This document shows positions 727-23,079 of a stretch of 23,079 nt of DNA, in pieces (position 1 is the first letter of the stretch; each line of letters starts with the position of its first letter). Under the pieces are notes generated by a model. The model made no database searches. It saw only the letters and a program-made list of their open reading frames with translations, and was not told the DNA's origin. The DNA is from Ramicandelaber brevisporus (Eukaryota; Kickxellomycota; Ramicandelaberales; Ramicandelaberaceae), in NCBI GenBank assembly GCA_025201865.1, contig MU602944.1, positions 8,257 through 31,335 on the forward strand, read 5' to 3'. Position numbers and translations under genes: made by a program.

Positions 727-770
<44 letters not shown>

Positions 771-834: not shown

Positions 835-3800
835 TTACCGCCGAATGATGACTGGTTGAGTTGCAGCGGTAGCAGGAGGAGGAAGGATAGGCATGATATC
901 GTTAGTGTGTAAATGAGTTAATGAGGAGACTGTTCTAGATACTCTTGGATGAGCCAGGTTAGTAGCATTTGTATGACCATTAAATATAGGTCTATGTAAT
1001 GAAGTGTTTTGATGGGCAGCTGAGTGTTTGTTGTTGACATGTAGATGTAGCAATTGTAGTTGGTGTAGCTGATGTTTAATGTTTGTTGATTCCGATTGTC
1101 CAATCAATATACTGGTGGAGCTGGTGGATTGCTGAGAGGGGACTCTAGTAGCAGGAAGAGAGACGGGCAAACCAATGGGAGGGGTTGAGGGATGGTTAAT
1201 TTCATTTGCCCACTTTAGTACGTTTAACTTAACATTATCAACGCAATATTGCAGCTCGGGTATTAAATCGGCCACCTTTTCATACATTGGTAAGGCTAGC
1301 TTCTCGTAGAAAAAGTGCTGAATCTGTGCAGTTTTATCTGGCAATCCAGGCATAGTTAGAGGCAAATTCAGACTTTCTTCAATATTTGTCAATATCAATG
1401 ATTCAACTACAAATCTCTCAGTCCACTGGGCTGCTACACTAAAATCTCTTGAAGTATTAACCAAGTCGCTGCATTTAATTAATGCTGCACATATGGTTTG
1501 TCTATCGCTTAATTTTATTTTTTCACATGAAAGATATCCATTATCTATATCATTGCGCATTTTTGCAAATCTATTCAAGTAATCTGAATGTCTACTCATA
1601 TCTGTTGCCAATACACTCGAGCTTGCAATTGCTCTAAAATGTGAATAATCAAACTGAGTATTACCATTGCTGCTGCCACTACTGTTGTTATTACTGTTAC
1701 TGTTACTGTTAATATTGTTGGGTAATTCTGAGCTTTGTGAGATTGGACAATACTTGGAAAATAACATGAACATTGACAATGCGTGGAAGTTTTCTAACAC
1801 AGATTGGTCATTAAACAAGTGGGCCAACGATGTGCCTGCGTTAGTCATGAACACATTAGACAGTCCCTGATGTCCCAAATCATGTCCCAAACACGCAATA
1901 ACCAGTGCAAATGCATCAATTGACTTTAAAATGTCTTTGCATGGTAGCGCTGTAGATTTCTCTTCTTTATTCTCATTGTATGTGAATCTCGATGAATGCA
2001 AAACTCCAGCTTTGTGCAGCATGTAATAAGTAGCTTGAGTAACATCCACTGCATGTTCAAAATTATGAAAGGCATTTGATGAATGATACGATCCACGAAC
2101 AGCCAGTAGGAATTTTCTAACGCCATCACGATCTAAAGCGACACCCGCCTGCTGAGCAGCACGTGTAACCATAATGTATGCACATCTCAAACAGTCATCT
2201 GCGCTGCGGAACGGAGTAAATGACCAACTCAGCAGTTCATCCTCTAATTGATTGACATGTGCCAGTATATCCTCGCTATTAATACTACTGTCATCAAACT
2301 CAACGCGAGAGAGCGAGGAAAGAGACTCTTCTCCACTTTCACCCATTCTGGGGAAACTACTCAAGTCATTTACATTTAAACTTGGTAGTAGAGTGTCCAA
2401 CACTATACTCTCCAACCAATAGGCACCACATGAATGGAAATGGTCTAATCCAGAACTTGGGTTAGAGTTAATAGGAGTGCCAGGCTGTTGAATTGAGTTA
2501 GCACTTGATCGACGCAAGTTGGAGTTAATATTATTGCTGTTGATATTAATGTTGGAATTGTTAGTCCCACAGCTACAGCCAATTACAGGAATATCAACAA
2601 CAGTTGGATCCAATGATAAGCCAGACAAGCTAAATCTACCAGCGGTTGTAGTGGGTGTGACTGGTGCTGCACTGGATGACGAGCGTGCTGATTCATTCTC
2701 TATGCCAATACTATTAATATTGATATTGACATTAGTACTGTTAGAGTGGAATGCAGCTTCCCGAGATAAATTAGAATCCATAACCACCACTACTCTATCG
2801 TTGCTATTATTATCTATGTTGGATGATGACGAAGAAGGAGGAGGCATGCCAGCGTTACCATTGTTACTAGCCAACGAGCTCTGCGAAGCTCTTGATGCAC
2901 CATAGGATGATGTGTGGCCAGTTAGAGGAGGCGATGGCAGCTGTGGTATAGCATTTCCACTAATATTGCTGCTGTTCACACTGTTGCTATGAGTGTTAAT
3001 GAGTACTTGCCAAGCAGAATTGACAGATTCGACCGAAACTGGTTTAGTTAAATATAATTTTGCACCAATTTCAATGCACTTTCTTATTAACACTGGAGAT
3101 GTGCAGATTGATGTAACAACGACTGCCATTGGCAATTGATTGCCTGATCTTGAACTCTCTTGTATTTTATGAATAATCTTTTCAGCCAATTTAATTCCAC
3201 ATGATGCAACCTCGATTGAATCAGTATTGTTACTACTATTGCCGTTGTTACCATTACTACTACCATTACTACCATTACTACCATTAATGCTACTGCCGCT
3301 ACTGTAGCAGCATGTGTTTCCAGCTAAATGATTATCAAGATCAATAATGACTAGCGTGGGCTGTAGAGCCGAGCCATTATTGGAGACAGTCGTGTTATTT
3401 GACGGTGATGACGCTGATGGAGATGATTGGTCCAAAATGGCATCGATAAAAGTAAGAGCCTCGCGACCATCCATTGCAGCTTGCACTCTATTATAGGACT
3501 CTAGCAAGTGTTGGACCAAGGAGGCTCCTCCATAGTTGATTGATCTCGATATGCCCAGTGATGATGCAAACGATTTTCGAGCACCTGGCGAAAGCTGAGA
3601 GTCTGATGTGGATTGACGCTGTATCTGTGTCTGCTGTATCTGCTGTGTCAGCTGCTGTATCTGTTGTTGTTGCTGTTGCTGTTGTTGCAAATGTGAATTA
3701 GACTCATTGATATCATGACGAGATGCATGGATAGACTTTGGGCGAAGAAGTCCATTAAAAATTGAGCGAAACACAGCCGAAGTCCGTGACCTAAGCTGCT

Positions 3801-4146
3801 GCTGTGAGCCTTGTCTTCGTGTAACTCGTATATTCGACACACCTGACGGCTGCTGTTGCTGTTGCTGCTGTTGCTGCTGCTGCTGAGATGCTGCTGAGAA
3901 GGGCTCTGCTACTGGTCCAGACAGAGAGACAGGGGGTGGTGGAGGTGGAGGAAGGGAAGTGGGGGCTGCTGCTGCTGCTGCTGCAGTGGTTGATTGATCT
4001 ATCACAGAGTGTATCCTCGTTGCACAGTCGTAGTTCTGGCCGTTGCTATTGCTGCCGGTGCTATTGCTGCTGCTGTTTGCGCCAGCGACTGCAGCCGGGA
4101 AGCACGCCGTGTCAACGAACAGTATAGCGACAGTTGACGATTGCAT
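835..4146 (-). CDS. RegA-like cAMP phosphodiesterase: N-terminal response-regulator receiver domain plus class I PDE catalytic domain
   Basis: The protein has 1103 residues and ends in TAA. I start it at ATG 4146; an upstream TTG would add ten residues. The class I cyclic nucleotide phosphodiesterase domain covers about residues 640-985. It has FHNFEHAVDV (His694 acid, His698 metal), HDLGHQGLSN (His755, Asp756), LIKCSDLVNTSR (Asp894) and a candidate purine-binding Gln943. The N-terminus carries receiver-domain elements: a first strand VAILFVD (residues 6-12, Asp12), helix and second strand near 209-238 (AAMDGREAL), LVIIDLD with candidate phosphoacceptor Asp269, AVVVTS (Thr345) and GAKLYLTKPV (Lys368). 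This order matches Dictyostelium RegA, whose phosphorylated receiver raises cAMP hydrolysis (family knowledge). Low-complexity Gln, Pro, Ala, Asn and Ser blocks split the receiver and link the domains (about 390-560). The C-terminal 110 residues look disordered. The catalytic call is firm; the receiver call is good but based on motifs. Confidence 0.88.
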   Translation of the reverse strand: MQSSTVAILFVDTACFPAAVAGANSSSNSTGSNSNGQNYDCATRIHSVIDQSTTAAAAAAAPTSLPPPPPPPVSLSGPVAEPFSAASQQQQQQQQQQQQPSGVSNIRVTRRQGSQQQLRSRTSAVFRSIFNGLLRPKSIHASRHDINESNSHLQQQQQQQQQIQQLTQQIQQTQIQRQSTSDSQLSPGARKSFASSLGISRSINYGGASLVQHLLESYNRVQAAMDGREALTFIDAILDQSSPSASSPSNNTTVSNNGSALQPTLVIIDLDNHLAGNTCCYSSGSSINGSNGSNGSSNGNNGNSSNNTDSIEVASCGIKLAEKIIHKIQESSRSGNQLPMAVVVTSICTSPVLIRKCIEIGAKLYLTKPVSVESVNSAWQVLINTHSNSVNSSNISGNAIPQLPSPPLTGHTSSYGASRASQSSLASNNGNAGMPPPSSSSSNIDNNSNDRVVVVMDSNLSREAAFHSNSTNVNININSIGIENESARSSSSAAPVTPTTTAGRFSLSGLSLDPTVVDIPVIGCSCGTNNSNININSNNINSNLRRSSANSIQQPGTPINSNPSSGLDHFHSCGAYWLESIVLDTLLPSLNVNDLSSFPRMGESGEESLSSLSRVEFDDSSINSEDILAHVNQLEDELLSWSFTPFRSADDCLRCAYIMVTRAAQQAGVALDRDGVRKFLLAVRGSYHSSNAFHNFEHAVDVTQATYYMLHKAGVLHSSRFTYNENKEEKSTALPCKDILKSIDAFALVIACLGHDLGHQGLSNVFMTNAGTSLAHLFNDQSVLENFHALSMFMLFSKYCPISQSSELPNNINSNSNSNNNSSGSSNGNTQFDYSHFRAIASSSVLATDMSRHSDYLNRFAKMRNDIDNGYLSCEKIKLSDRQTICAALIKCSDLVNTSRDFSVAAQWTERFVVESLILTNIEESLNLPLTMPGLPDKTAQIQHFFYEKLALPMYEKVADLIPELQYCVDNVKLNVLKWANEINHPSTPPIGLPVSLPATRVPSQQSTSSTSILIGQSESTNIKHQLHQLQLLHLHVNNKHSAAHQNTSLHRPIFNGHTNATNLAHPRVSRTVSSLTHLHTNDIMPILPPPATAATQPVIIRR
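3523..4110 (-). repeat. Low-complexity coding insertion (poly-Ala, poly-Pro, two poly-Gln tracts) inside the receiver domain
   Basis: Roughly residues 13-208 of the phosphodiesterase carry a Ser/Asn-rich stretch, a run of seven alanines, a run of seven prolines, a run of twelve glutamines and a second run of nine glutamines followed by a Gln/Ile/Thr-rich segment. On the plus strand these appear as CTG/TTG-type trinucleotide tracts near 3645-3690 and 3850-3890. The insertion lies between the first beta strand (Asp12) and the first helix of the receiver fold. The frame stays open throughout, so this is coding expansion rather than a broken gene. Confidence 0.75.
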
Positions 4147-4396: not shown

Positions 4397-6982
4397 TTAA
4401 AGAGAGCGGCAAGTACCTGGAACAGAGAGAACAGAGGAAGTGAGGGTGCACAGAGGAGATGGCAGACGGATGACTGCCTCTTCCTGCATTGAAGCACCAT
4501 CCAGTATGACAAGGTAGCCACGTGGATTGTCGAGAGTGCAGTCTGTGGCAAAGAATACCACATAGCCGCTGCCGTCGCTACCGCCACCACCACCGCCGCC
4601 GCCGCCGCCGCCTCCAATCCTTCCTCCTTCGACACCCTCCTTGTGTTCTGCGTTTTTACGAGCAATGATGGCAGGTTCGGAAGGGAACCACCCAGGCCGG
4701 TGCCAAGTGATAGCCTCGTTTGTACCAGAGATGTCGATTTTCACTACAGAGTCCCACATTCCACCGCTGCCATTGTTGTTATGCAAACGATGTGAGGCGG
4801 AGTTTGATGCGGCGTTGCTGCTGGTGCTGGTGCTGGTGCTGGTGTCATTGTTGTTGTTGTTGCCGCTGTGAGAGAAAGAGAGTCCAAACACAAATGTGGG
4901 TACAGAGGATGGATCATCAACTGACGGGTGTGTTTTGGGATAGTCGATTGGCACTGCACTAATTGGCATTGAGGGTGCGTTTGGCCACACTGTGCCTGAT
5001 TTGATATTGCCAGATGAGGATAGAGTGGATGAGAATCGCTCGGATTCAATGGTCAAGTGGCTAAATGCAAATCTACGTAGCTCGCCTCCCTTTGTATTGA
5101 AGTGCCCAGAATGCAAATTGGCCAACGAAAGGTCAGACTCAATGCAGCTGTTCTGATGAACAATAATATCCAAATATAGCACATCATTCTCGGCATCTTC
5201 AATTGCAGAGACACATCTAGTTGGATGATAAAAGGGAGACTGATATACTGCAATTAATCTGCCTTGTTCACGTGATATGATATAGAATAATAAAGGATCG
5301 TCTGACAGCTGCTGGGCAGGCTGTTGCCATCCAAACGACTCACAAACTGTACTTGCTTTCCATTTAAGCTTCAGCCCGGTTGCTGATGAGTGCGAGGGCG
5401 ATGCCGGAATGACTACAAATCTAGGCGATACTGCAAAACTATTGATAAATGTCGGTTTAACTGCCTTAAACTCTGCAATAATCTCACCTAGCATTCCCTT
5501 CCCAGCATGCTTGACTGTGGCCAATACTTTAATAGTTGTACTTGATGATAACCCAATTTCATTGGACACTGTAATAAGCTCTCTAGAAGTTGGATCGTAT
5601 ACAGTTTGTGGGCATGTAAACGTAGCCTTATACATTGATGCAAACTCCTCCCATCTTCTCGTCCAGTTTACCTGCAGTGTTTCCACATCTATTTGCTGAA
5701 CATACCCAATGTGGTTCTGGCAGTAGATTGAGCCTGCTCGCTTAGCTACATTTTGTGCACCATTCTCACTCTCATTCTCATCCACATATTCGCTACTGGC
5801 CAGCGTCTGCTTTCTATTACCTCCACTCTGTCCACCTGGAAACTTGGTATAAATAGAGCCCATGCATGATATCAAATCTGGCTCATTGTGAAGACGCGAG
5901 CTGATTGGTGCAGGTGCCATCAGCTTTGCAATAAAGCTCTGGTTGGTGCCGGTTCCATAAAATGTTGCACTGTGCTCAGGAATATATCCACCACTCTGCT
6001 GAATCATATTGAACAGACTCTGGGCTGTTGGTCTACTAGCATAATCTAGCTGTTTATCAACTGAAGCACGTCCATCAATAGTAACCCTTGTTGCGACAGG
6101 CAGTGCATCTCTAATGTGCCCAAACTTGAAATGACGCGTCTCATATCCAGATTCACCTTGTCGAGTATATGGAACACTAAATGTACCCGGTCCAATGCAC
6201 ACAATAGTGGCTACGAGATCCTCCGGCACCTTGCCTGCAACAACCTGCAGCTTGGCTGATGCTGATGCTGATGCTGATGCTGACGATGAAATTCCAGCGC
6301 CTGATATCATCCGTACATATAAAGATGATGGATCTACGTGGTCCTCGCTGCTGATGCTGTAGTTTCCCGAAATCGAGTCAAATCTACGAGCCTGGTGAGA
6401 TACACGAGATGGCTGCACATTGGTGGATAAGCTCGGCCGAGGTCCGCTCGCTGCAAACGACATTCGCTGATGCTCAATACCGCGTCTTCTTGGTGGCAGA
6501 GGTGGCATCGATGGACTGGCCGCATCCGATTCCTCTTCATCATGCTTTGCTAGCTGAATGGCATCAGGGGCACCCATAGCTTGATTCTCATTACCGTCAC
6601 CTTGTGTAGCAGTAGTAGTAGTAGCAGGAGTAGTAATGGTAGCAGTAGCGGTAGCAGTAGTAGCAGTAGTAATAGTAGTGGTGGTGGTGGCAACAGTAGT
6701 GTCATCGTCAGCTTTAGGAGACGAGCTCTGAGGCTCGATAACGGCCCGTACTGATTCAGCTTTGGCGCTGTTGGAGATAGGCTCGCTCGATACCCCAGGT
6801 CCCGTGTTGGATGTCTGGTGAGGTGGAGTCTGCTGCTTGTTCATCAGCTCGGCAAACTCCAGTTCGAGGTCCTTTGAGGAGATGGGCTCGTCTAGTTCGC
6901 GCAGCATCGCCAGGGTCTCCTCTGACAGCTGCTCATCGTCGTCTACACGACCCACTGGACGGTCTGTTGGCGCGCTCTCCAT
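4397..6982 (-). CDS. Carotenoid-oxygenase (RPE65/CCD) family protein, probably catalytically inactive
   Basis: The protein has 861 residues. ATG 6982 (MESAPTDRPVG) is preferred; the frame runs further upstream but would then overlap the MCM8 start. The first 250 residues are low-complexity (Thr-rich, Ser/Ala runs). The rest shows the carotenoid oxygenase propeller: GKVPEDLVATIVCIGPGTFSV resembles the family's IPxxLxGTxxRxGPG, FGHIRDALPVATRVTIDG resembles FGHWFDGLxxxHRF, and GWFPSEPAIIARKNA and GYLVILDGASMQEEAVIRLP match its last blades. Active members cleave carotenoids or stilbenes using Fe(II) held by four histidines. Here the equivalent sites read Cys457 (TCPQTVYDP), Asn514 (INSFAVSP) and Arg589-Cys590 (TRCVSAIED). 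The final GFHG segment is missing because the frame stops 17 residues after RLPSPL. A poly-Gly run sits in the last blades. The family call is good; the inactivity is inferred from alignment by eye. Confidence 0.78.
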   Translation of the reverse strand: MESAPTDRPVGRVDDDEQLSEETLAMLRELDEPISSKDLELEFAELMNKQQTPPHQTSNTGPGVSSEPISNSAKAESVRAVIEPQSSSPKADDDTTVATTTTTITTATTATATATITTPATTTTATQGDGNENQAMGAPDAIQLAKHDEEESDAASPSMPPLPPRRRGIEHQRMSFAASGPRPSLSTNVQPSRVSHQARRFDSISGNYSISSEDHVDPSSLYVRMISGAGISSSASASASASAKLQVVAGKVPEDLVATIVCIGPGTFSVPYTRQGESGYETRHFKFGHIRDALPVATRVTIDGRASVDKQLDYASRPTAQSLFNMIQQSGGYIPEHSATFYGTGTNQSFIAKLMAPAPISSRLHNEPDLISCMGSIYTKFPGGQSGGNRKQTLASSEYVDENESENGAQNVAKRAGSIYCQNHIGYVQQIDVETLQVNWTRRWEEFASMYKATFTCPQTVYDPTSRELITVSNEIGLSSSTTIKVLATVKHAGKGMLGEIIAEFKAVKPTFINSFAVSPRFVVIPASPSHSSATGLKLKWKASTVCESFGWQQPAQQLSDDPLLFYIISREQGRLIAVYQSPFYHPTRCVSAIEDAENDVLYLDIIVHQNSCIESDLSLANLHSGHFNTKGGELRRFAFSHLTIESERFSSTLSSSGNIKSGTVWPNAPSMPISAVPIDYPKTHPSVDDPSSVPTFVFGLSFSHSGNNNNNDTSTSTSTSSNAASNSASHRLHNNNGSGGMWDSVVKIDISGTNEAITWHRPGWFPSEPAIIARKNAEHKEGVEGGRIGGGGGGGGGGGGSDGSGYVVFFATDCTLDNPRGYLVILDGASMQEEAVIRLPSPLCTLTSSVLSVPGTCRSL

Positions 6983-7190
6983 CGTCTTCTGTACGTTGCC
7001 AAGAGTTGTTATCGCCGAAGTGCGCGCTGGTGAGATTACTTCTTTCTTCGTGGAGCGTGTGTGTGTGCGTGTGTGTGTGTTGTGGGGGATTGTTCGATGC
7101 GGCTTGCGGGCCGAGCCTGTTTTGTTTGCTGATCTGTCTGACACTCCAACCGCAGCAATAACAACACAATCAATCAAAGCGCACACCAAC
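6983..7190. promoter_or_regulatory. Short divergent promoter shared by the carotenoid-oxygenase-like gene and MCM8
   Basis: Only 208 bp separate two divergent start codons, so the promoters must share or abut sequence. The region holds a GT/GC microsatellite (about 7057-7081) and an ATTG (7090-7093), which reads CAAT on the minus strand. The MCM8 start context, CACCAACATGAGC, is favourable with A at -3. No TATA box is obvious. Confidence 0.55.
7057..7081. repeat. (GT)n tract with one GC interruption
   Basis: Alternating purine-pyrimidine repeat in the middle of the divergent promoter between the carotenoid-oxygenase-like gene and MCM8. Confidence 0.85.
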
Positions 7191-10100
7191 ATGAGCGAGT
7201 CTGCACCGCCAAAGCGCCAGCGTCTTGATGACGGCAACAGCAGCGACGGCTCAATATCTGGATTTGCCGCACCGAAGACGAGTCGTAGTCGTGGTGGTGG
7301 TGGTGGTGGTGGCGGTCGAGGTGGACGTGGAGGTGGTGGACGTGGAAATGGTGGCAGCCGTGGCGGCCGCGGTGGCAGAGGAGGACAACGCAGCGGGAGT
7401 GCTTCTTCAGGCAGCTTCCGTCCATCTGCAGCGATGGATACTGAAATGGATGATGATTACACCGAAGTGTCGATATCGAAGCGCTCTGCGCGGAATCCAT
7501 TTGCCAGCTGGACAGCTTACTTGCCAAATGTTGCATATTCTCCAACTAGTGAGATTGGTCAGTTTGTACATCGAGGCATAAGTCATTATCGCATAAATCC
7601 ATCTGACTACACGGTTGTTGAGTCTGGCACAGTTCCAATTGTTGTATGCATCAACTATGAGAAGACTCTGAAAGCATTTGCACCTGATGGTGGAACTCAG
7701 GGCGATCAGAAGTTTACAAAGCTATTTGAGAGTGCATTACAAGCTCAGGCAGAGAATTACATTAAAGCGCTATGTATAGTATTCCATGAGATACTATTGC
7801 ACAACACCGCAGTGCCAGAGAGTGCAGCATCGAATAATGAGTCAATCACAGCTGTGCAGGTTTCCAACACTAAGTCGCAGTCGCTATTGACAGCAGCAAC
7901 CCCGTTTGCAGCAGTTGTAGTCCGAGTGCTTCACATTACTCCAACTACTCCACTGCGTGACTTTAAGGCCAATATGATTGGCCGCCTAGTTAGTGTGCGA
8001 GGCACAGTTGTTAGAACATCGTCCATCAAGCCATTGTTGACTCGGGTGGCGTTTCGATGTGCATCTTGTGGTGGAAGACAGACTGTGACGCTGACTGATG
8101 GTCGCTTTGTGTATCCAACTCGATGCAGTACTATTGGGTGTCGATGTAAGCAGTTTAATCCAGAGCGTGGCACCAACACAGCCAGTGGATCCAATGCTTC
8201 ACTGGACACTCGTACTATTGATTGGCAGCAGATTCGAATTCAAGAGAAGTTGGCAGATTCCAGGGAGGAGGCCGGCAGAGTTCCTCGCACTGTAGATTGC
8301 GAGCTAGCCAATGACTTGGTAGACACAGTTGTGCCAGGAGATGTGGTTACAGTTAGTGGTATAATTAAAGTGTTGCAGACTCCAGATAGTAGAGCAGCTG
8401 GTGGAAACTCGGCTCAATCAACAAATGCAATGTATGTATTATATATTGATGCGGTATCTATTCAGAAGTTAGGCGGTGGCTCCAGTGACAATGGCAATGG
8501 TGGTAACAACAATGGTAGCAACGTTAATGGTAGTAAATTTGATAAACGTAAGTATTCCAATAATGATAACGATGATGATGATGACGAGCGTAAGCAACGC
8601 ATTAATACAAAAGATGCAATATTTTTTACACCAAATGATTTGGCATTTATCAGAGACATTGTTCAAGAGCCTGATTTACTTCGATTGATTGTTCATTCTT
8701 TATGTCCTTCTATTTATGGACATGATTTGGTTAAATGTGGAATTTTATTGGGTTTATTTGGCGCACGTCGTCGCAATATTCAATCTGGAAACAATAATAA
8801 TAGTAATAATAGTAGTGGTGGCAGTAATGGTAATAGTAGTGGTGGTAGCAATGGTATTAATGATAGTGTAAATAACAATAATAAAAATGGCCACAGCAAT
8901 AGTAATAATTCAAGTAATAATAGCCATGGGAATAGGAACAGCAATAACAATAACCCTGCTAGTAATAATAATAGTAATAATGGAAAGATGAATATTAGAT
9001 CAGATCCGCATGTATTAATTGTAGGTGATCCGGGATTAGGCAAATCACAATTGCTTGGTACAGCAATAGCAGTAGCACCAAGAGGGGTTTATGTATGTGG
9101 AAGTAGTGGAATTACAACAGGAGGATTAACAGTGTCGCTTCACAGAGAATCAGGCAGTAAAGGTGACTTTGCGCTAGAAGCAGGCGCACTCGTACTGGCA
9201 GATCAAGGCGTGTGTGGAATCGATGAGTTTGATAAAATGAGTTCGGATTATTCGGCATTGCTGGAAGCTATGGAACAGCAGCAAATATCAATAGCCAAAG
9301 GTGGATTAGTGGCTAGTTTACCTGCTCGTACAAGTGTCATTGCCGCAGCGAATCCTGTTGGTGGTCATTATAACAGATCAAAAACAGTTTCCGAGAATCT
9401 CAGATTAAACTCTGCTTTATTGTCTAGATTTGATTTGGTGTTTTTATTGCTGGATCGACCAGATGCAAATATGGATGCATTTCTTACCGATCATTTGCTG
9501 GCCATGCATACTGGCTTATCTCGCACATCCATTGTACGTGCTCCTCCTTCTCTTTTAGCATCTTCCATGGCATCTGGTCCACTACACGCAGGTCAGACTC
9601 AATCACCCGTCAGTGGCAACAACAACAACAACAACAGTAGCAACAATAATAACAATGGTAGAATGTCACTAAGAGATAGATTGCCATTAAAACCTGGAGA
9701 GCAGTTTGACAGTGTTCCTCATCCATTGTTGCGTAAATACATTGCATATGCTCGCAAATATGTTCATCCAAGATTAACTGGTGAGGCAGCAAAGACTATT
9801 CAGAATTTCTATTTAGAACTAAGAAGCAAATATCGAGGAGAGAATACTACTCCAATCACCACTCGTCAGCTGGAATCTTTAATTAGATTATCTGAAGCTA
9901 GAGCTAAAATTGAGCTCAGAGAAGAAGTGACTGAAGATGATGCTCAGGATATTATTGAAATTATGCAGTATAATTTAACCGACACTTTTGCTGAGGATGA
10001 TGATATTATGCATAATTACTCACTAAATGGAGTTGATTTGCAAAGATCTCAAATGGGAACTGGAATGTCCCAGCGCGGTGAAATCAATAGATTTGCTAAA

Positions 10101-10289
10101 GCTCTTCACCAGCGTGCTAATTTCAAATCGAGCTCAATGTTCTCCAGAGCTGAACTACATCAGGTTGCCAGTGAAATTGGACTTCATATTAACAACATGT
10201 CTGTGATGGATGTTGTTGATTCAATGCGTAATCAAAACATCATCCTTCTTAAAGGAAACGGCCAATTCCAACTATGCTCCGCTTCTTAA
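7191..10289 (+). CDS. MCM8: DNA helicase MCM8
   Basis: The protein has 1032 residues; human MCM8 has about 840. The start MSESAPPKRQRL has a good context and a basic NLS-like PPKRQRL; open frame upstream is antisense to the neighbour. Residues 32-70 form an RGG-rich tail. The N-terminal MCM domain holds a zinc motif (Cys290, Cys293, Cys312, Cys317) and DWQQIRIQE, followed by GRVPRTVDCELANDLVD and VPGDVVTVSGIIKV, which are diagnostic of MCM8 rather than MCM2-7. The AAA+ core has Walker A GDPGLGKS (Lys618), Walker B GIDEFDK (Asp678-Glu679), AANPVGGHYN and the arginine finger SRFD (Arg746). The C-terminus has a lid and winged-helix region. MCM8 works with MCM9 in homologous recombination and interstrand crosslink repair (family knowledge). 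Asn/Ser/Gly-rich insertions lie before Walker A (about 8785-8990) and after the arginine finger (about 9606-9660). All catalytic residues are intact. Confidence 0.93.
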   Translation: MSESAPPKRQRLDDGNSSDGSISGFAAPKTSRSRGGGGGGGGRGGRGGGGRGNGGSRGGRGGRGGQRSGSASSGSFRPSAAMDTEMDDDYTEVSISKRSARNPFASWTAYLPNVAYSPTSEIGQFVHRGISHYRINPSDYTVVESGTVPIVVCINYEKTLKAFAPDGGTQGDQKFTKLFESALQAQAENYIKALCIVFHEILLHNTAVPESAASNNESITAVQVSNTKSQSLLTAATPFAAVVVRVLHITPTTPLRDFKANMIGRLVSVRGTVVRTSSIKPLLTRVAFRCASCGGRQTVTLTDGRFVYPTRCSTIGCRCKQFNPERGTNTASGSNASLDTRTIDWQQIRIQEKLADSREEAGRVPRTVDCELANDLVDTVVPGDVVTVSGIIKVLQTPDSRAAGGNSAQSTNAMYVLYIDAVSIQKLGGGSSDNGNGGNNNGSNVNGSKFDKRKYSNNDNDDDDDERKQRINTKDAIFFTPNDLAFIRDIVQEPDLLRLIVHSLCPSIYGHDLVKCGILLGLFGARRRNIQSGNNNNSNNSSGGSNGNSSGGSNGINDSVNNNNKNGHSNSNNSSNNSHGNRNSNNNNPASNNNSNNGKMNIRSDPHVLIVGDPGLGKSQLLGTAIAVAPRGVYVCGSSGITTGGLTVSLHRESGSKGDFALEAGALVLADQGVCGIDEFDKMSSDYSALLEAMEQQQISIAKGGLVASLPARTSVIAAANPVGGHYNRSKTVSENLRLNSALLSRFDLVFLLLDRPDANMDAFLTDHLLAMHTGLSRTSIVRAPPSLLASSMASGPLHAGQTQSPVSGNNNNNNSSNNNNNGRMSLRDRLPLKPGEQFDSVPHPLLRKYIAYARKYVHPRLTGEAAKTIQNFYLELRSKYRGENTTPITTRQLESLIRLSEARAKIELREEVTEDDAQDIIEIMQYNLTDTFAEDDDIMHNYSLNGVDLQRSQMGTGMSQRGEINRFAKALHQRANFKSSSMFSRAELHQVASEIGLHINNMSVMDVVDSMRNQNIILLKGNGQFQLCSAS
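8785..8990 (+). repeat. Asn/Ser/Gly-rich coding insertion before the MCM8 Walker A motif
   Basis: About 70 residues are built almost only from Asn, Ser and Gly, encoded by AAT/AAC/AGT/GGT codon runs. They sit between GILLGLFGARRRNIQ and the strand that leads into GDPGLGKS. The frame is intact. Length appears driven by trinucleotide slippage. Confidence 0.85.
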
Positions 10290-15776: not shown

Positions 15777-17783
15777 ATGCATATCCGATCGAGACTGCTT
15801 GTGCCATGGTTGGTGGCAATGCTGCTGATGGCGTTCAGCATGCTGTGCTCGGCATCCTTGTTTATTCCAGCGATCAACCGAACGTTTGCCATGTACGACA
15901 TGTACGGCGAAACCGATCAGACTTTTTACAACTTTACAGGGCCGCTCGTCTTGTTGCGGTTCAAACCAGAAGTGTGGTGCACGCTGGATGTGTCTGGCCA
16001 AGCCCCTCCGCCGCTAATCCCGCCAGCACAGATACCATTGTTGGCCAACTCATCATCCATGGTCTTCGTGTTCTCTGGTGACATGCACGCAGCAGACTGT
16101 CCATCATTTGCCTCAATTATGCGACAATTTCCATCCACTTTGCCAACAATCGAGAAAATGTACAGCATTCCTCCAGTACGTCTCGCAATATTCACCAGCT
16201 CATTGAAGTCAGACGTTGAGTTTGGATCAAATGAAGAAGAGCCGTTTGACGACTATTGGACAGCACGGCCACCTGGCCTTCGAACATCAGTGGTGGCTCT
16301 CGACTCTGGCTACATTCTACGAAAATTCATCACAATGCCTCATCCTCGGCCGCCTGCAGCAAACAGCACAGCAACACCGGCACCACCACCACCATCACCA
16401 TCACCATCACCATCACCATCGTCACCACCATTGGCGCCACAGCCGTCGGCCAGCGCAAACAGTGGTCCACCACCAGCCATTGTAGCGCACGCAATTCAGG
16501 AGATTGGGCCATGGAATGAATATATCAAGTCAACTTACTATCGAACAGAAACCATTCTTTTATCCGTATTGTACGGTCTCTACGCGGCATATGCAGCATT
16601 CATTCTCCTCCGGGCAGCAGTCCATCACACTCTAGGCAGATGGTTCAAGACAATCTCATTCTTGTGCGTTATTCAGATGATGGTAATGAACCTCTTTTGC
16701 CAAGAGCGATTTCCTATGACGCGTCTTCAGCGTTCAGTTCAATTTGCGACGTGGCTAATTGGTAATATCATGTACACATGCGTTGTTGTGAAATGGGCCG
16801 CATTTATGAGACGGCTCTGTCCAAGTAACTTTGTGTTTTACATGCTGGTGGCTGTGTGTGTCATAAACATTATTGTGTTCTCAATTGCGATGATTGTGTT
16901 GATTGTTGGGCTGTATAGTAAGTATCTATCGGTTCTCCAGGCTGGCTTAGAGCTGCTCACGAAGGGTTCTCTCATCACGTTTGGCATCGAGGCTCTATAC
17001 GTACTAGTAATTGGTTTTATATATATGACCCATTTGAACAGACTCAGAGTGACTCGCAACACCCTGCAGCTCCTCAAGCGTGAAACTGCATCGTTGTTCG
17101 TATTCTTTGTCGGTCGTACACTGATGTGCGTCTCATTGGGCTTACTGGGTGCCGGATATGTATTTGAAGTTGGGCATGCTAAAGTCACAGATGCATTCTA
17201 CCATGCTGGTGTGTTGGTTGTGTACGCTGGTATTCTATGGGCTCTCAACCTGCAGGATTATCCACAGCGCCGCCAAGAGGCTCCAGATGTCCGATCATCT
17301 TCCATAACCGATACTCAGGCAGTAAGCGATGGCCCACAAGACACGTTCTTTGCTCACCCAGTGCGATGCACAAGAGAGAGACTCTCCAGCATCGCTACAT
17401 TGGTTGGCAGGAACAATGGTCAGTACGCATCCAAGTCACCATCCAATCAACAGTTTGATGCACTGGGCCGTCAGCCTAGTATGAACGATGATCATTCAAA
17501 GCGAAGACCAAGCATATTCAATCCACGGTGGCTTCCAGTCCGAAGAGCAACCATTGGCACGTCAGCTTCTTTAACTTCCCCGGCAACGAGATCAGCATCG
17601 GCCGCAACTACTTCCGCGGCCCCAGTCAAACCAGATAACGAGAGTGGCCAAGACGTTGACTTGCGGATAGTTGCTGGTAATGAACAGCATGACTCCATTG
17701 AGGCTGATCAGCTGATAGACACAGGAAGACTTGACAAGCCTGCCAATGATGACAATGACCATGATCATGACCCAGTATCTTAA
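15777..17783 (+). CDS. Signal-peptide-bearing seven-transmembrane (receptor-like) protein, family not recognised
   Basis: The protein has 668 residues from ATG 15777. Residues 1-27 form a signal peptide (hydrophobic WLVAMLLMAFSMLCSA). An extracellular or lumenal domain follows to about residue 255, with N-glycosylation sequons NRT (34), NFT (52), NSS (91) and NST (196). This domain carries a Pro/Ser-rich repeat (about 201-232, SPSPSPSPSS). Seven hydrophobic helices then follow at about 258-280, 289-308, 321-344, 352-380, 397-420, 437-463 and 473-492. The tail of about 175 residues is rich in Ser, Arg and Asp and ends in an acidic HDHD segment. This layout (cleaved signal, glycosylated ectodomain, seven helices, Ser-rich cytosolic tail) resembles a G-protein-coupled or GOST-type protein. 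I recognise no signature of a known class, so a ligand or function cannot be given. The 3' end converges on the GMC gene, 64 bp away. Confidence 0.82.
   Translation: MHIRSRLLVPWLVAMLLMAFSMLCSASLFIPAINRTFAMYDMYGETDQTFYNFTGPLVLLRFKPEVWCTLDVSGQAPPPLIPPAQIPLLANSSSMVFVFSGDMHAADCPSFASIMRQFPSTLPTIEKMYSIPPVRLAIFTSSLKSDVEFGSNEEEPFDDYWTARPPGLRTSVVALDSGYILRKFITMPHPRPPAANSTATPAPPPPSPSPSPSPSSPPLAPQPSASANSGPPPAIVAHAIQEIGPWNEYIKSTYYRTETILLSVLYGLYAAYAAFILLRAAVHHTLGRWFKTISFLCVIQMMVMNLFCQERFPMTRLQRSVQFATWLIGNIMYTCVVVKWAAFMRRLCPSNFVFYMLVAVCVINIIVFSIAMIVLIVGLYSKYLSVLQAGLELLTKGSLITFGIEALYVLVIGFIYMTHLNRLRVTRNTLQLLKRETASLFVFFVGRTLMCVSLGLLGAGYVFEVGHAKVTDAFYHAGVLVVYAGILWALNLQDYPQRRQEAPDVRSSSITDTQAVSDGPQDTFFAHPVRCTRERLSSIATLVGRNNGQYASKSPSNQQFDALGRQPSMNDDHSKRRPSIFNPRWLPVRRATIGTSASLTSPATRSASAATTSAAPVKPDNESGQDVDLRIVAGNEQHDSIEADQLIDTGRLDKPANDDNDHDHDPVS
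16378..16434 (+). repeat. CACCAT/CACCAC repeat encoding the Pro-Ser linker
   Basis: Tandem CACCAC then CATCAC-type hexamers encode the Pro-Pro-Ser-Pro-Ser linker between the ectodomain and the first membrane helix of the seven-helix protein. The repeat is in frame and probably length-variable. Confidence 0.85.
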
Positions 17784-22685: not shown

Positions 22686-23079
22686 CTAACTGATTAGGGG
22701 AAGGGTTTCAGATTCGTTGAGAGTCACGACAAATGTGAGGCTCATGAACTGCAGCATGAACTGCGGGTTCTCGTGCACCATGGTTTTGTAGGCTTGCCGG
22801 GAGAGACTGAGCACTGTGCAGTCGGTCTCGGCCCAGAGCGTGGTGGAGCGCCGCTTGCCCAGGAGCAGGCTCTTCTCGCCGACAATGGCACCAGGCAGCA
22901 CGGACTCGTCGATGGTCTGACAGCGCCGGGTAGCGTCGCTTGACTGGCGGACCATCCTCATTGCGCCGGATTCCACAACCAGGATCCCATAGTCAGGCGA
23001 GTCGCCGGCGGACCACACCCGCTCGCCGGCAAGAAGCTGCCGCGTCTCAAACCACCGCGCCACATACACCAGCATGTCT
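22686..23079 (-). CDS. C-terminal cyclic-nucleotide-binding domain protein, 5' part outside the window
   Basis: The frame is open to the window edge (an Asp codon precedes the first Met, at 23075) and ends in TAG at 22686, giving about 131 residues. The sequence is a CAP/PKA-type cyclic-nucleotide-binding fold: FETRQLLAGERVWSAGDSPDYGILVVESGAMRMV forms the first strands. The phosphate-binding cassette reads GAIVGEKSLLLGKRRSTTLWAE, with its Glu and Arg conserved. The C-terminal helix follows (SRQAYKTMVHENPQFMLQFM). The domain lies at the extreme C-terminus, as in fungal SulP/STAS transporters of the Vsb1 (YGR125W) type, and TTLWAETDCTVLSLSRQAY is similar to those. That family choice is tentative; a PKA regulatory subunit is less likely because no second such domain follows in tandem. 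Real nucleotide binding is not proven. Confidence 0.75.
   Translation of the reverse strand, partial: DMLVYVARWFETRQLLAGERVWSAGDSPDYGILVVESGAMRMVRQSSDATRRCQTIDESVLPGAIVGEKSLLLGKRRSTTLWAETDCTVLSLSRQAYKTMVHENPQFMLQFMSLTFVVTLNESETLPLIS

What the first reader, a model, noticed from the sequence alone, without database searches (positions are those of the whole stretch)
835..4146. RegA-like fusion of a phosphorelay receiver domain to a cAMP phosphodiesterase in a fungus
The sequence shows an intact class I phosphodiesterase site (His694, His698, His755, Asp756, Asp894) and, N-terminal to it, all four receiver-domain landmarks: acidic Asp12, Asp269 in LVIIDLD, Thr345 in AVVVTS, and Lys368 in YLTKPV. 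In Dictyostelium RegA this architecture lets histidine kinases control cAMP; mammalian PDE8 carries a receiver-like region. Well-studied fungi route phosphorelays through Ssk1 and Skn7 and have separate Pde1/Pde2. Here one protein could connect the two directly.
Basis: partly seen in the sequence, partly recalled or inferred. Interest (0 to 1): 0.8.

Follow-up and report, generated by a model that had tools for sequence, protein, structure and literature searches.

The report
Fungal cAMP phosphodiesterase with receiver domain
This gene is the fungus's version of the yeast enzyme that destroys the messenger cAMP, but it still carries a hidden bacterial-style switch domain at its front end, suggesting that early fungi may have wired stress-sensing phosphate relays directly to cAMP.

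Summary

It is not a new fusion. The tree puts it inside fungal Pde2, next to Coemansia-type fungi. The same front end occurs in Pde2 of many early-diverging fungi, is eroded in ascomycetes (lysine lost in 51 of 51), and was not found in four basidiomycetes. Asp269 and Lys368 are right. Thr345 is one off: Ser346 is the equivalent. The acidic pair is incomplete (Asp12, Thr13), with a conserved Asp271 after the acceptor.

Most likely: Pde2 in its ancestral form, a cAMP phosphodiesterase modulated by an atypical receiver, probably fed by this genome's Ypd1-type phosphotransfer protein. Phosphorylation is untested; a locked pseudo-receiver is the main rival. Ten literature searches found no such description in fungi.

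The parts
835..4146 (-). Whole ORF, 1103 aa, ATG at 4146, TAA at 835-837, no intron
   Evidence: start agrees with the M-x-x-x-x-C-S-V-L-V-V-D starts of many relatives
4111..4128 (-). Receiver strand 1 (residues 7-11) and Asp12; residue 13 is Thr, so the second acidic residue is missing
3535..4110 (-). Low-complexity insert 1 (residues 13-204: poly-A, poly-P, poly-Q), mostly disordered in the model apart from predicted helices at 119-132 and 146-179
   Evidence: pLDDT under 50 at 17-145 and 178-204, helices 119-132 and 146-179; helix 146-179
3424..3534 (-). Receiver helix 1, strand 2, helix 2 (residues 205-241)
3334..3357 (-). Receiver strand 3 with acceptor-position Asp269 (3340-3342) and conserved Asp271 (3334-3336)
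3205..3333 (-). Low-complexity insert 2 (residues 272-314: Ser/Asn/Gly) in the strand 3 to helix 3 loop, next to the acceptor site
   Evidence: (pLDDT under 50 at 275-305)
3148..3204 (-). Receiver helix 3 (residues 315-333)
3109..3129 (-). Receiver strand 4 (residues 340-346) ending in Ser346 (3109-3111), equivalent of CheY Thr87
3040..3096 (-). Receiver helix 4 and strand 5 (residues 351-369) with Gly361-Ala362 and Lys368-Pro369 (3040-3045)
2968..3033 (-). Receiver helix 5 (residues 372-393)
2278..2967 (-). Long linker, mostly low-complexity (residues 394-623), with predicted helices at 568-586 and 592-597
   Evidence: pLDDT under 50 at 392-574 and 608-616
1195..2277 (-). Class I cyclic nucleotide phosphodiesterase domain (residues 624-984; Pfam PDEase_I 693-972 = 1231-2070)

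Best explanation
The gene encodes the fungal high-affinity-type cAMP phosphodiesterase Pde2 in its ancestral, receiver-bearing form. SHOWN by computation: a class I phosphodiesterase domain with intact metal and purine-binding residues; an N-terminal receiver fold with acceptor-position Asp269, Ser346 and Lys368; the same arrangement across early-diverging fungi; an eroded version in ascomycete Pde2. INFERRED: the receiver is a regulatory switch on the phosphodiesterase. The likeliest input is phosphate passed from a hybrid histidine kinase through the single Ypd1-type HPt protein to Asp269, with the unusual Asp271 (acceptor +2) helping to replace the missing second acidic metal ligand. Phosphorylation would then raise or lower cAMP hydrolysis, as in Dictyostelium RegA, where phosphorylation activates (PMC11988041, passages).
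Against: The acidic pair is incomplete: Asp12 only, residue 13 is Thr. Among relatives with Asp12 the next residue was S, R, K, N, A or G (23 rows), and several lineages lack Asp12 (Mucor rows read F-N-D, so may hold an Asp in the second place instead). No M-P motif follows the acceptor. The three other receivers found in this genome (C144, C50, C132) all have the E-D pair and D-x-x-x-P after the acceptor, so this one is clearly different. Pfam does not reach its cut-off. Ascomycetes kept Pde2 while losing the lysine (0 of 51 Lys), so the enzyme does not need the switch there. I have no phosphorylation, interaction or activity data.
Confidence: 0.5

Rival explanations
1. Pseudo-receiver: the domain kept the receiver fold but is not phosphorylated. 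It is a fixed structural or docking module (dimerisation, scaffold or partner binding), or binds an anion or metal at the old site.
For: Second acidic residue absent; variable first acidic residue in relatives; Pfam below cut-off; long insert beside the site; site eroded in ascomycetes while the domain stays. Recalled, from no call: the paper on the C. albicans Pde2 crystal structure (6cpt/6cpu) describes an N-terminal part packed rigidly on the catalytic domain.
Against: Acceptor Asp, Asp+2, Ser and Lys are among the best-conserved columns of the domain in early-diverging fungi, which plain structural use does not readily explain.
Confidence: 0.42
2. A lineage-specific new fusion, unrelated to Pde2, that copies the RegA design.
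For: RegA has the same domain order (PMC11988041, passages).
Against: Tree puts the catalytic domain inside fungal Pde2; the same N-terminal domain occurs in Pde2 of many early-diverging lineages and, eroded, in ascomycetes (hhalign probability 99.6).
Confidence: 0.03
3. Chance resemblance: low-complexity sequence with a few hydrophobic stretches mistaken for a receiver.
For: Pfam E only 0.21 for this protein; 521 of 1103 residues with pLDDT under 50.
Against: the motif set occurs in 1 of 20000 shuffles.
Confidence: 0.01

Closest known systems
Fungal high-affinity cAMP phosphodiesterase Pde2 / PdeH (C. albicans Pde2 6cpt, Magnaporthe PdeH, Botrytis BcPde2)
   Same: Catalytic domain groups with fungal Pde2; best PDB sequence match 6cpt, E 1.7e-32; filamentous ascomycete members share the N-terminal domain in eroded form
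   Different: Here the acceptor Asp, Asp+2, Ser and Lys are kept; ascomycetes have Pro at +2 (49 of 50) and no Lys (0 of 51). The Magnaporthe and Botrytis papers have no occurrence of 'receiver' or 'response regulator' (term counts and passages); the arbuscular-mycorrhizal Pde2 table lists PDEase_I only (passage)
Dictyostelium RegA
   Same: Receiver N-terminal to a class I cAMP phosphodiesterase; RegA is fed by an HPt protein (RdeA) at Asp212 (PMC11988041, passages)
   Different: RegA phosphorylation is reported in the literature; here it is untested and the acidic pair is incomplete. Sequence kinship with RegA could not be tested
Receiver-phosphodiesterases from unnamed metagenome sources (P0028, P0032, P0205, P0207)
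   Same: Receiver plus PDEase_I in one chain; P0028 receiver matches the early-fungal N-terminal profile at E 2.4e-7
   Different: Their receivers are in the precomputed Pfam domains; P0028, P0032 and P0207 have a full acidic stretch (V-V-D-D-D), the P0205 record starts after that point. P0207's receiver matched the fungal profile only at E 0.074. Catalytic domains of the three put in the tree (P0028, P0205, P0207) fall outside fungal Pde2
Mammalian PDE8A
   Same: Human PDE8A is said to contain a REC domain (PMC9585345, passage); best human PDE in the sequence search (3.2e-20)
   Different: No mammalian PDE8 was in the tree; two nematode rows that I take to be PDE8-like (P0034 with a PAS domain, P0037) fall outside fungal Pde2. 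The PDE8 receiver region was not compared
Ssk1, hybrid histidine kinase and Skn7 receivers
   Same: Same fold
   Different: E-D pair in the C144, C50 and C132 receivers of this genome; no phosphodiesterase. No Response_reg match lay on a contig with an HSF_DNA-bind match, so no Skn7-type receiver was seen

Membership tests
Fungal Pde2 (class I cyclic nucleotide phosphodiesterase) | PDEase_I domain above the Pfam cut-off | tested here: met
   176.3 bits against 24.8, E 1.1e-51
Fungal Pde2 (class I cyclic nucleotide phosphodiesterase) | Metal-site His/His/Asp/Asp, catalytic His, purine-binding Gln and Phe | tested here: met
   His694, His698, His755, Asp756, Asp894, Gln943, Phe946 invariant in 42 sequences; roles recalled from PDE4 structures
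Fungal Pde2 (class I cyclic nucleotide phosphodiesterase) | Catalytic domain inside the fungal Pde2 clade | tested here: met
   19-row fungal clade 100/97 including Lachancea, Geotrichum and Fusarium; 33-row tree, 11 of 30 inner branches open, long branches flagged
Fungal Pde2 (class I cyclic nucleotide phosphodiesterase) | Nanomolar cAMP affinity and cAMP specificity | not testable with these tools
   needs enzyme assays
Canonical response-regulator receiver (PF00072) | (beta-alpha)5 receiver fold | tested here: met
   predicted structure only:
Canonical response-regulator receiver (PF00072) | Score above the Pfam gathering cut-off | tested here: not met
   12.2 bits against 30.2
Canonical response-regulator receiver (PF00072) | Acceptor Asp at end of strand 3; Thr/Ser at end of strand 4; Lys-Pro at end of strand 5 | tested here: met
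   Asp269, Ser346, Lys368-Pro369
Canonical response-regulator receiver (PF00072) | Acidic pair after strand 1 | tested here: not met
   Asp12-Thr13, one of two
Canonical response-regulator receiver (PF00072) | Phosphorylation at the acceptor Asp | not testable with these tools
   needs biochemistry
RegA orthologue | Receiver-phosphodiesterase order in one chain | tested here: met
RegA orthologue | Catalytic and receiver domains group with RegA in a tree | not tested
   no amoebozoan RegA record was listed by the three homology searches
RegA orthologue | Activity controlled by HPt phosphotransfer | not testable with these tools
   HPt and kinase matches are present, which is only permissive
C. 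albicans Pde2 N-terminal part as a relic receiver | Receiver fold in 6cpt residues 1-201 | tested here: inconclusive
   Sequence profile match begins at chain residue 195; the Foldseek alignments to 6cpu/6cpt have 402-408 columns, no longer than those to catalytic-domain-only chains such as 3ly2_A (411), ranges not given; the 50 rows shown by VIA do not include 6cpt. Range 1-201 recalled

The most novel reading that the evidence does not exclude
The common ancestor of terrestrial fungi had a cAMP phosphodiesterase directly switched by a histidine phosphorelay, using an atypical receiver with the metal-binding acid moved to acceptor +2 (D-x-D). The switch still works in Zoopagomycota and Mucoromycota, was disarmed in ascomycetes (whose Pde2 N-terminus, and perhaps the yeast one, is its fossil), and was lost in basidiomycetes. 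Fungal two-component signalling would then have one more kind of output beside Ssk1 and Skn7.
Probability: 0.38. Interest if true: 0.8.

Novelty: new variant of a known kind. Interest (0 to 1): 0.6.

Why it matters
Pde2 is a well-studied cAMP enzyme of fungi, yet in the papers I looked into (passages) its N-terminal part goes without a name. Recognising it as a receiver descendant gives a concrete, testable link between histidine kinase sensing and cAMP in early-diverging fungi. It would explain why Pde2 has a conserved non-catalytic half, and it corrects the view that receiver-phosphodiesterases such as RegA have no fungal counterpart. Even if the site is dead, the graded decay from early fungi to filamentous ascomycetes (and perhaps yeasts) is a clean case of a receiver becoming a pseudo-receiver.

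Tried and rejected
New fusion in this fungus: rejected. Chance motif: rejected.

Sequence link to yeasts and basidiomycetes (59 sequences of which 50 are shuffles): the Geotrichum N-terminus matched the ascomycete profile weakly (E 2.9e-4; best shuffle 0.076) but not the early-fungal profile (0.39; best shuffle 0.29). Lachancea and four basidiomycete N-termini (P0023, P0024, P0025, P0201) were not among the six best rows printed for either profile (worst printed E 2.1 and 1.2). Left as inconclusive for yeasts; basidiomycete loss rests on these four.

RegA/PDE8 tree: not possible, because no amoebozoan RegA record was listed (all three homology searches used; one search listed 120 of 201 hits). 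The full-length model searches showed only phosphodiesterase matches, so the receiver was folded alone. Fragments 1-390 and 1-645 (A3, A4) misaligned at their ends and were not folded; A5 (residues 1-380, output cut at 90000 characters) was used. Foldseek rmsd values for that model are high (4-12) because the inserts are aligned through; the VIA values (2.1-2.9) are the ones I rely on.

Counts: one search took 141 proteins (P0001-P0022 and P0086-P0204; P0023-P0085, basidiomycetes and distant phosphodiesterases, were not given) and kept 125. 16 were dropped: P0021 for no regex match, 15 for too short an N-terminus, including Syncephalis P0102 and P0108 and basidiomycete P0201. Many Coemansia gene models among the 74 non-ascomycete rows begin near strand 4, so they are gaps at Asp269. 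Four unnamed metagenome rows (P0159, P0161, P0175, P0199) were counted with the ascomycetes by their place in the hit list; other unnamed rows (such as P0093, P0101, P0139, P0192) were counted as non-ascomycete. Phylum labels come from organism names and recall. One search used 50 of 52 chosen sequences; one search used 37 of those 50 as the early set (window, five truncated rows and seven ascomycetes left out). A1 holds the window and one ascomycete, P0143, among its 42. One search matched strand 1 by a regular expression in 124 proteins; 28 had no match, it mis-registered the window row by one residue, and a few non-ascomycete rows (for example P0118, P0130, P0173, P0184, P0192) are not strand 1, so I use it only for the residue after Asp12.

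NCBIfam: 1 hit in 4 proteins, far below its cut-off (16.5 bits against 450); not used. No PDEase_II (Pde1 type) was found in this genome.

Literature: ten searches listed no paper that I could see describing a receiver in a fungal phosphodiesterase; I opened passages of eleven papers. The library lacks most subscription papers. Database labels show automated hints only: Pfam Response_reg precomputed for Halteromyces P0128, 'CheY-like' for metagenome protein P0093, 'regA' as a name for some fungal proteins.
Full report
WHAT IS THERE. The ORF runs on the minus strand from ATG at 4146 to TAA at 835-837: 1103 residues without an intron. Many relatives begin with M-x-x-x-x-C-S-V-L-V-V-D, which fits M-Q-S-S-T-V-A-I-L-F-V-D here and supports the start codon. 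Pfam finds PDEase_I (residues 693-972, E 1.1e-51) and only a weak trace of Response_reg (338-375, E 0.21, 12.2 bits against a cut-off of 30.2).

IT IS A FAMILY TRAIT. Of the 42 members of A1 (the window, one ascomycete and 40 others, mostly early-diverging fungi), 33 match Response_reg at E<=0.1 (best 2.2e-7); the window is not among them. In a second set of 20 (ascomycetes, yeasts, basidiomycetes and four metagenomic receiver-phosphodiesterases) 4 match (the call does not say which, presumably the four metagenomic ones). A profile of 37 relatives' N-termini, window left out, aligned to 7 receivers with probability 97.85 and score 78.8; 20 column-shuffled controls scored at most 21.0. The 7 ascomycete N-termini against receivers directly reached only probability 11.6 (score 26), but against the early-fungal profile 99.6. 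I read the ascomycete domain as a descendant that can hardly be recognised directly.

THE SITE. In 125 of 141 proteins with enough N-terminus, the 74 non-ascomycete rows have Asp at the Asp269 column in 55 of 58 residues, Asp/Glu at Asp271 in 57 of 57, Ser at Ser346 in 62 of 69, Lys at Lys368 in 66 and Arg in 4 of 72, and Pro369 in 71 of 72. In the 51 ascomycete rows Asp269 is kept (47 of 50), but position 271 is Pro in 49 of 50 and Lys368 is never Lys (0 of 51; Ser 36, Cys 7, Asn 5, Thr 2, Gly 1). Among 48 non-redundant non-ascomycete sequences, Asp269, Asp271, Lys368 and Ser346 rank 5th, 6th, 8th and 14th of 180 columns in conservation. So the phosphorylation-site geometry looks constrained in early-diverging fungi and relaxed in ascomycetes. 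Against a canonical receiver stands the acidic pair: Asp12 is followed by Thr13, and in relatives with Asp12 by Ser, Arg, Lys, Asn, Ala or Gly (23 rows); several lineages lack Asp12, and Mucor rows read F-N-D there. I propose that Asp271 stands in as metal ligand; this is inference. A CheY variant with Asp at this +2 position exists as a solved structure (3rvr, N59D, title only). That CheY needs Asp13 for metal binding is recalled.

THE PHOSPHORELAY IN THIS GENOME. G000 is 17.9 Mb in 510 contigs. The Response_reg search gave five matches in three genes, the window's own gene not among them: C144 (hybrid kinase of Nik1 type by my reading), C50 (HisKA plus receiver in one frame; no HATPase_c match was listed there) and C132 (Ssk1-like by my reading). 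HisKA matches above cut-off are on C144, C50 and C4, and the one HPt match is on C273 with H-Y-L-K-G. Fifteen HSF_DNA-bind matches (13 above cut-off) all lie on contigs other than those with receivers, so no Skn7-type receiver was seen (six-frame search, split genes can be missed). There is one cyclase-domain match, three PDEase_I genes and no PDEase_II match. The parts for HPt control are present; that is permissive, not proof.

MECHANISM. Best reading: a cAMP phosphodiesterase whose receiver moves with phosphorylation at Asp269 and so modulates hydrolysis. RegA is the precedent: phosphate passes from RdeA His65 to RegA Asp212 and activates it (PMC11988041, passages), and RegA is conserved in Amoebozoa and Naegleria (PMC4399386, passages). 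The direction of the effect here cannot be predicted. The rival, a pseudo-receiver used as a fixed scaffold, is nearly as likely (0.42 against 0.50).

PRIOR WORK. Ten full-text searches of open-licence papers listed no description that I could see of a receiver in fungal Pde2. The Magnaporthe PdeH and Botrytis BcPde2 papers have no occurrence of 'receiver' or 'response regulator' (term counts), and the mycorrhizal Pde2 table lists PDEase_I only (passage). Automated labels hint at it (Halteromyces P0128 with Response_reg; some fungal proteins named regA). No paper on the C. albicans Pde2 structure was listed, so whether its authors noted a receiver fold is unknown to me.

VERDICT. Interest 0.6; new variant of a known kind.

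Noticed in passing
window 22689-23078, minus: Open-ended reading frame with a cyclic nucleotide-binding domain (cNMP_binding, E 4.3e-15), cut by the window end, about 18 kb from the phosphodiesterase gene.
   Followed up: partly
window 4397-7237, minus: RPE65-type (carotenoid oxygenase) protein, E 6.5e-33, with a low-complexity front part; its ORF lies just upstream of the phosphodiesterase gene on the same strand.
   Followed up: no
window 7182-10286, plus: MCM8-type helicase (winged helix MCM8 domain E 1.2e-20) interrupted by large Asn/Ser/Gly low-complexity inserts, like the receiver.
   Followed up: no
window 15777-17783, plus: 668-residue protein with apparent membrane segments (by eye) and a proline-rich stretch and no Pfam family at E<=0.001.
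   Followed up: no
L003 (own genome C132) and L002 (C50): The Ssk1-like receiver has a Ser/Gly/Thr-rich insert of roughly 80 residues before strand 4; the C50 receiver has a similar insert before strand 3 (by eye).
   Followed up: no
L007 (C308) and L008 (C17), own genome: Two further PDEase_I genes forming their own pair (100/100) outside fungal Pde2, with H-S-F in place of H-N-F at the catalytic motif.
   Followed up: partly
P0023, P0024, P0025, P0201: Four basidiomycete phosphodiesterases with short N-termini that were not among the printed matches of either receiver profile: apparent loss of the domain.
   Followed up: partly
window 727-770: Long (TG)n run downstream of the phosphodiesterase stop codon.
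   Followed up: no
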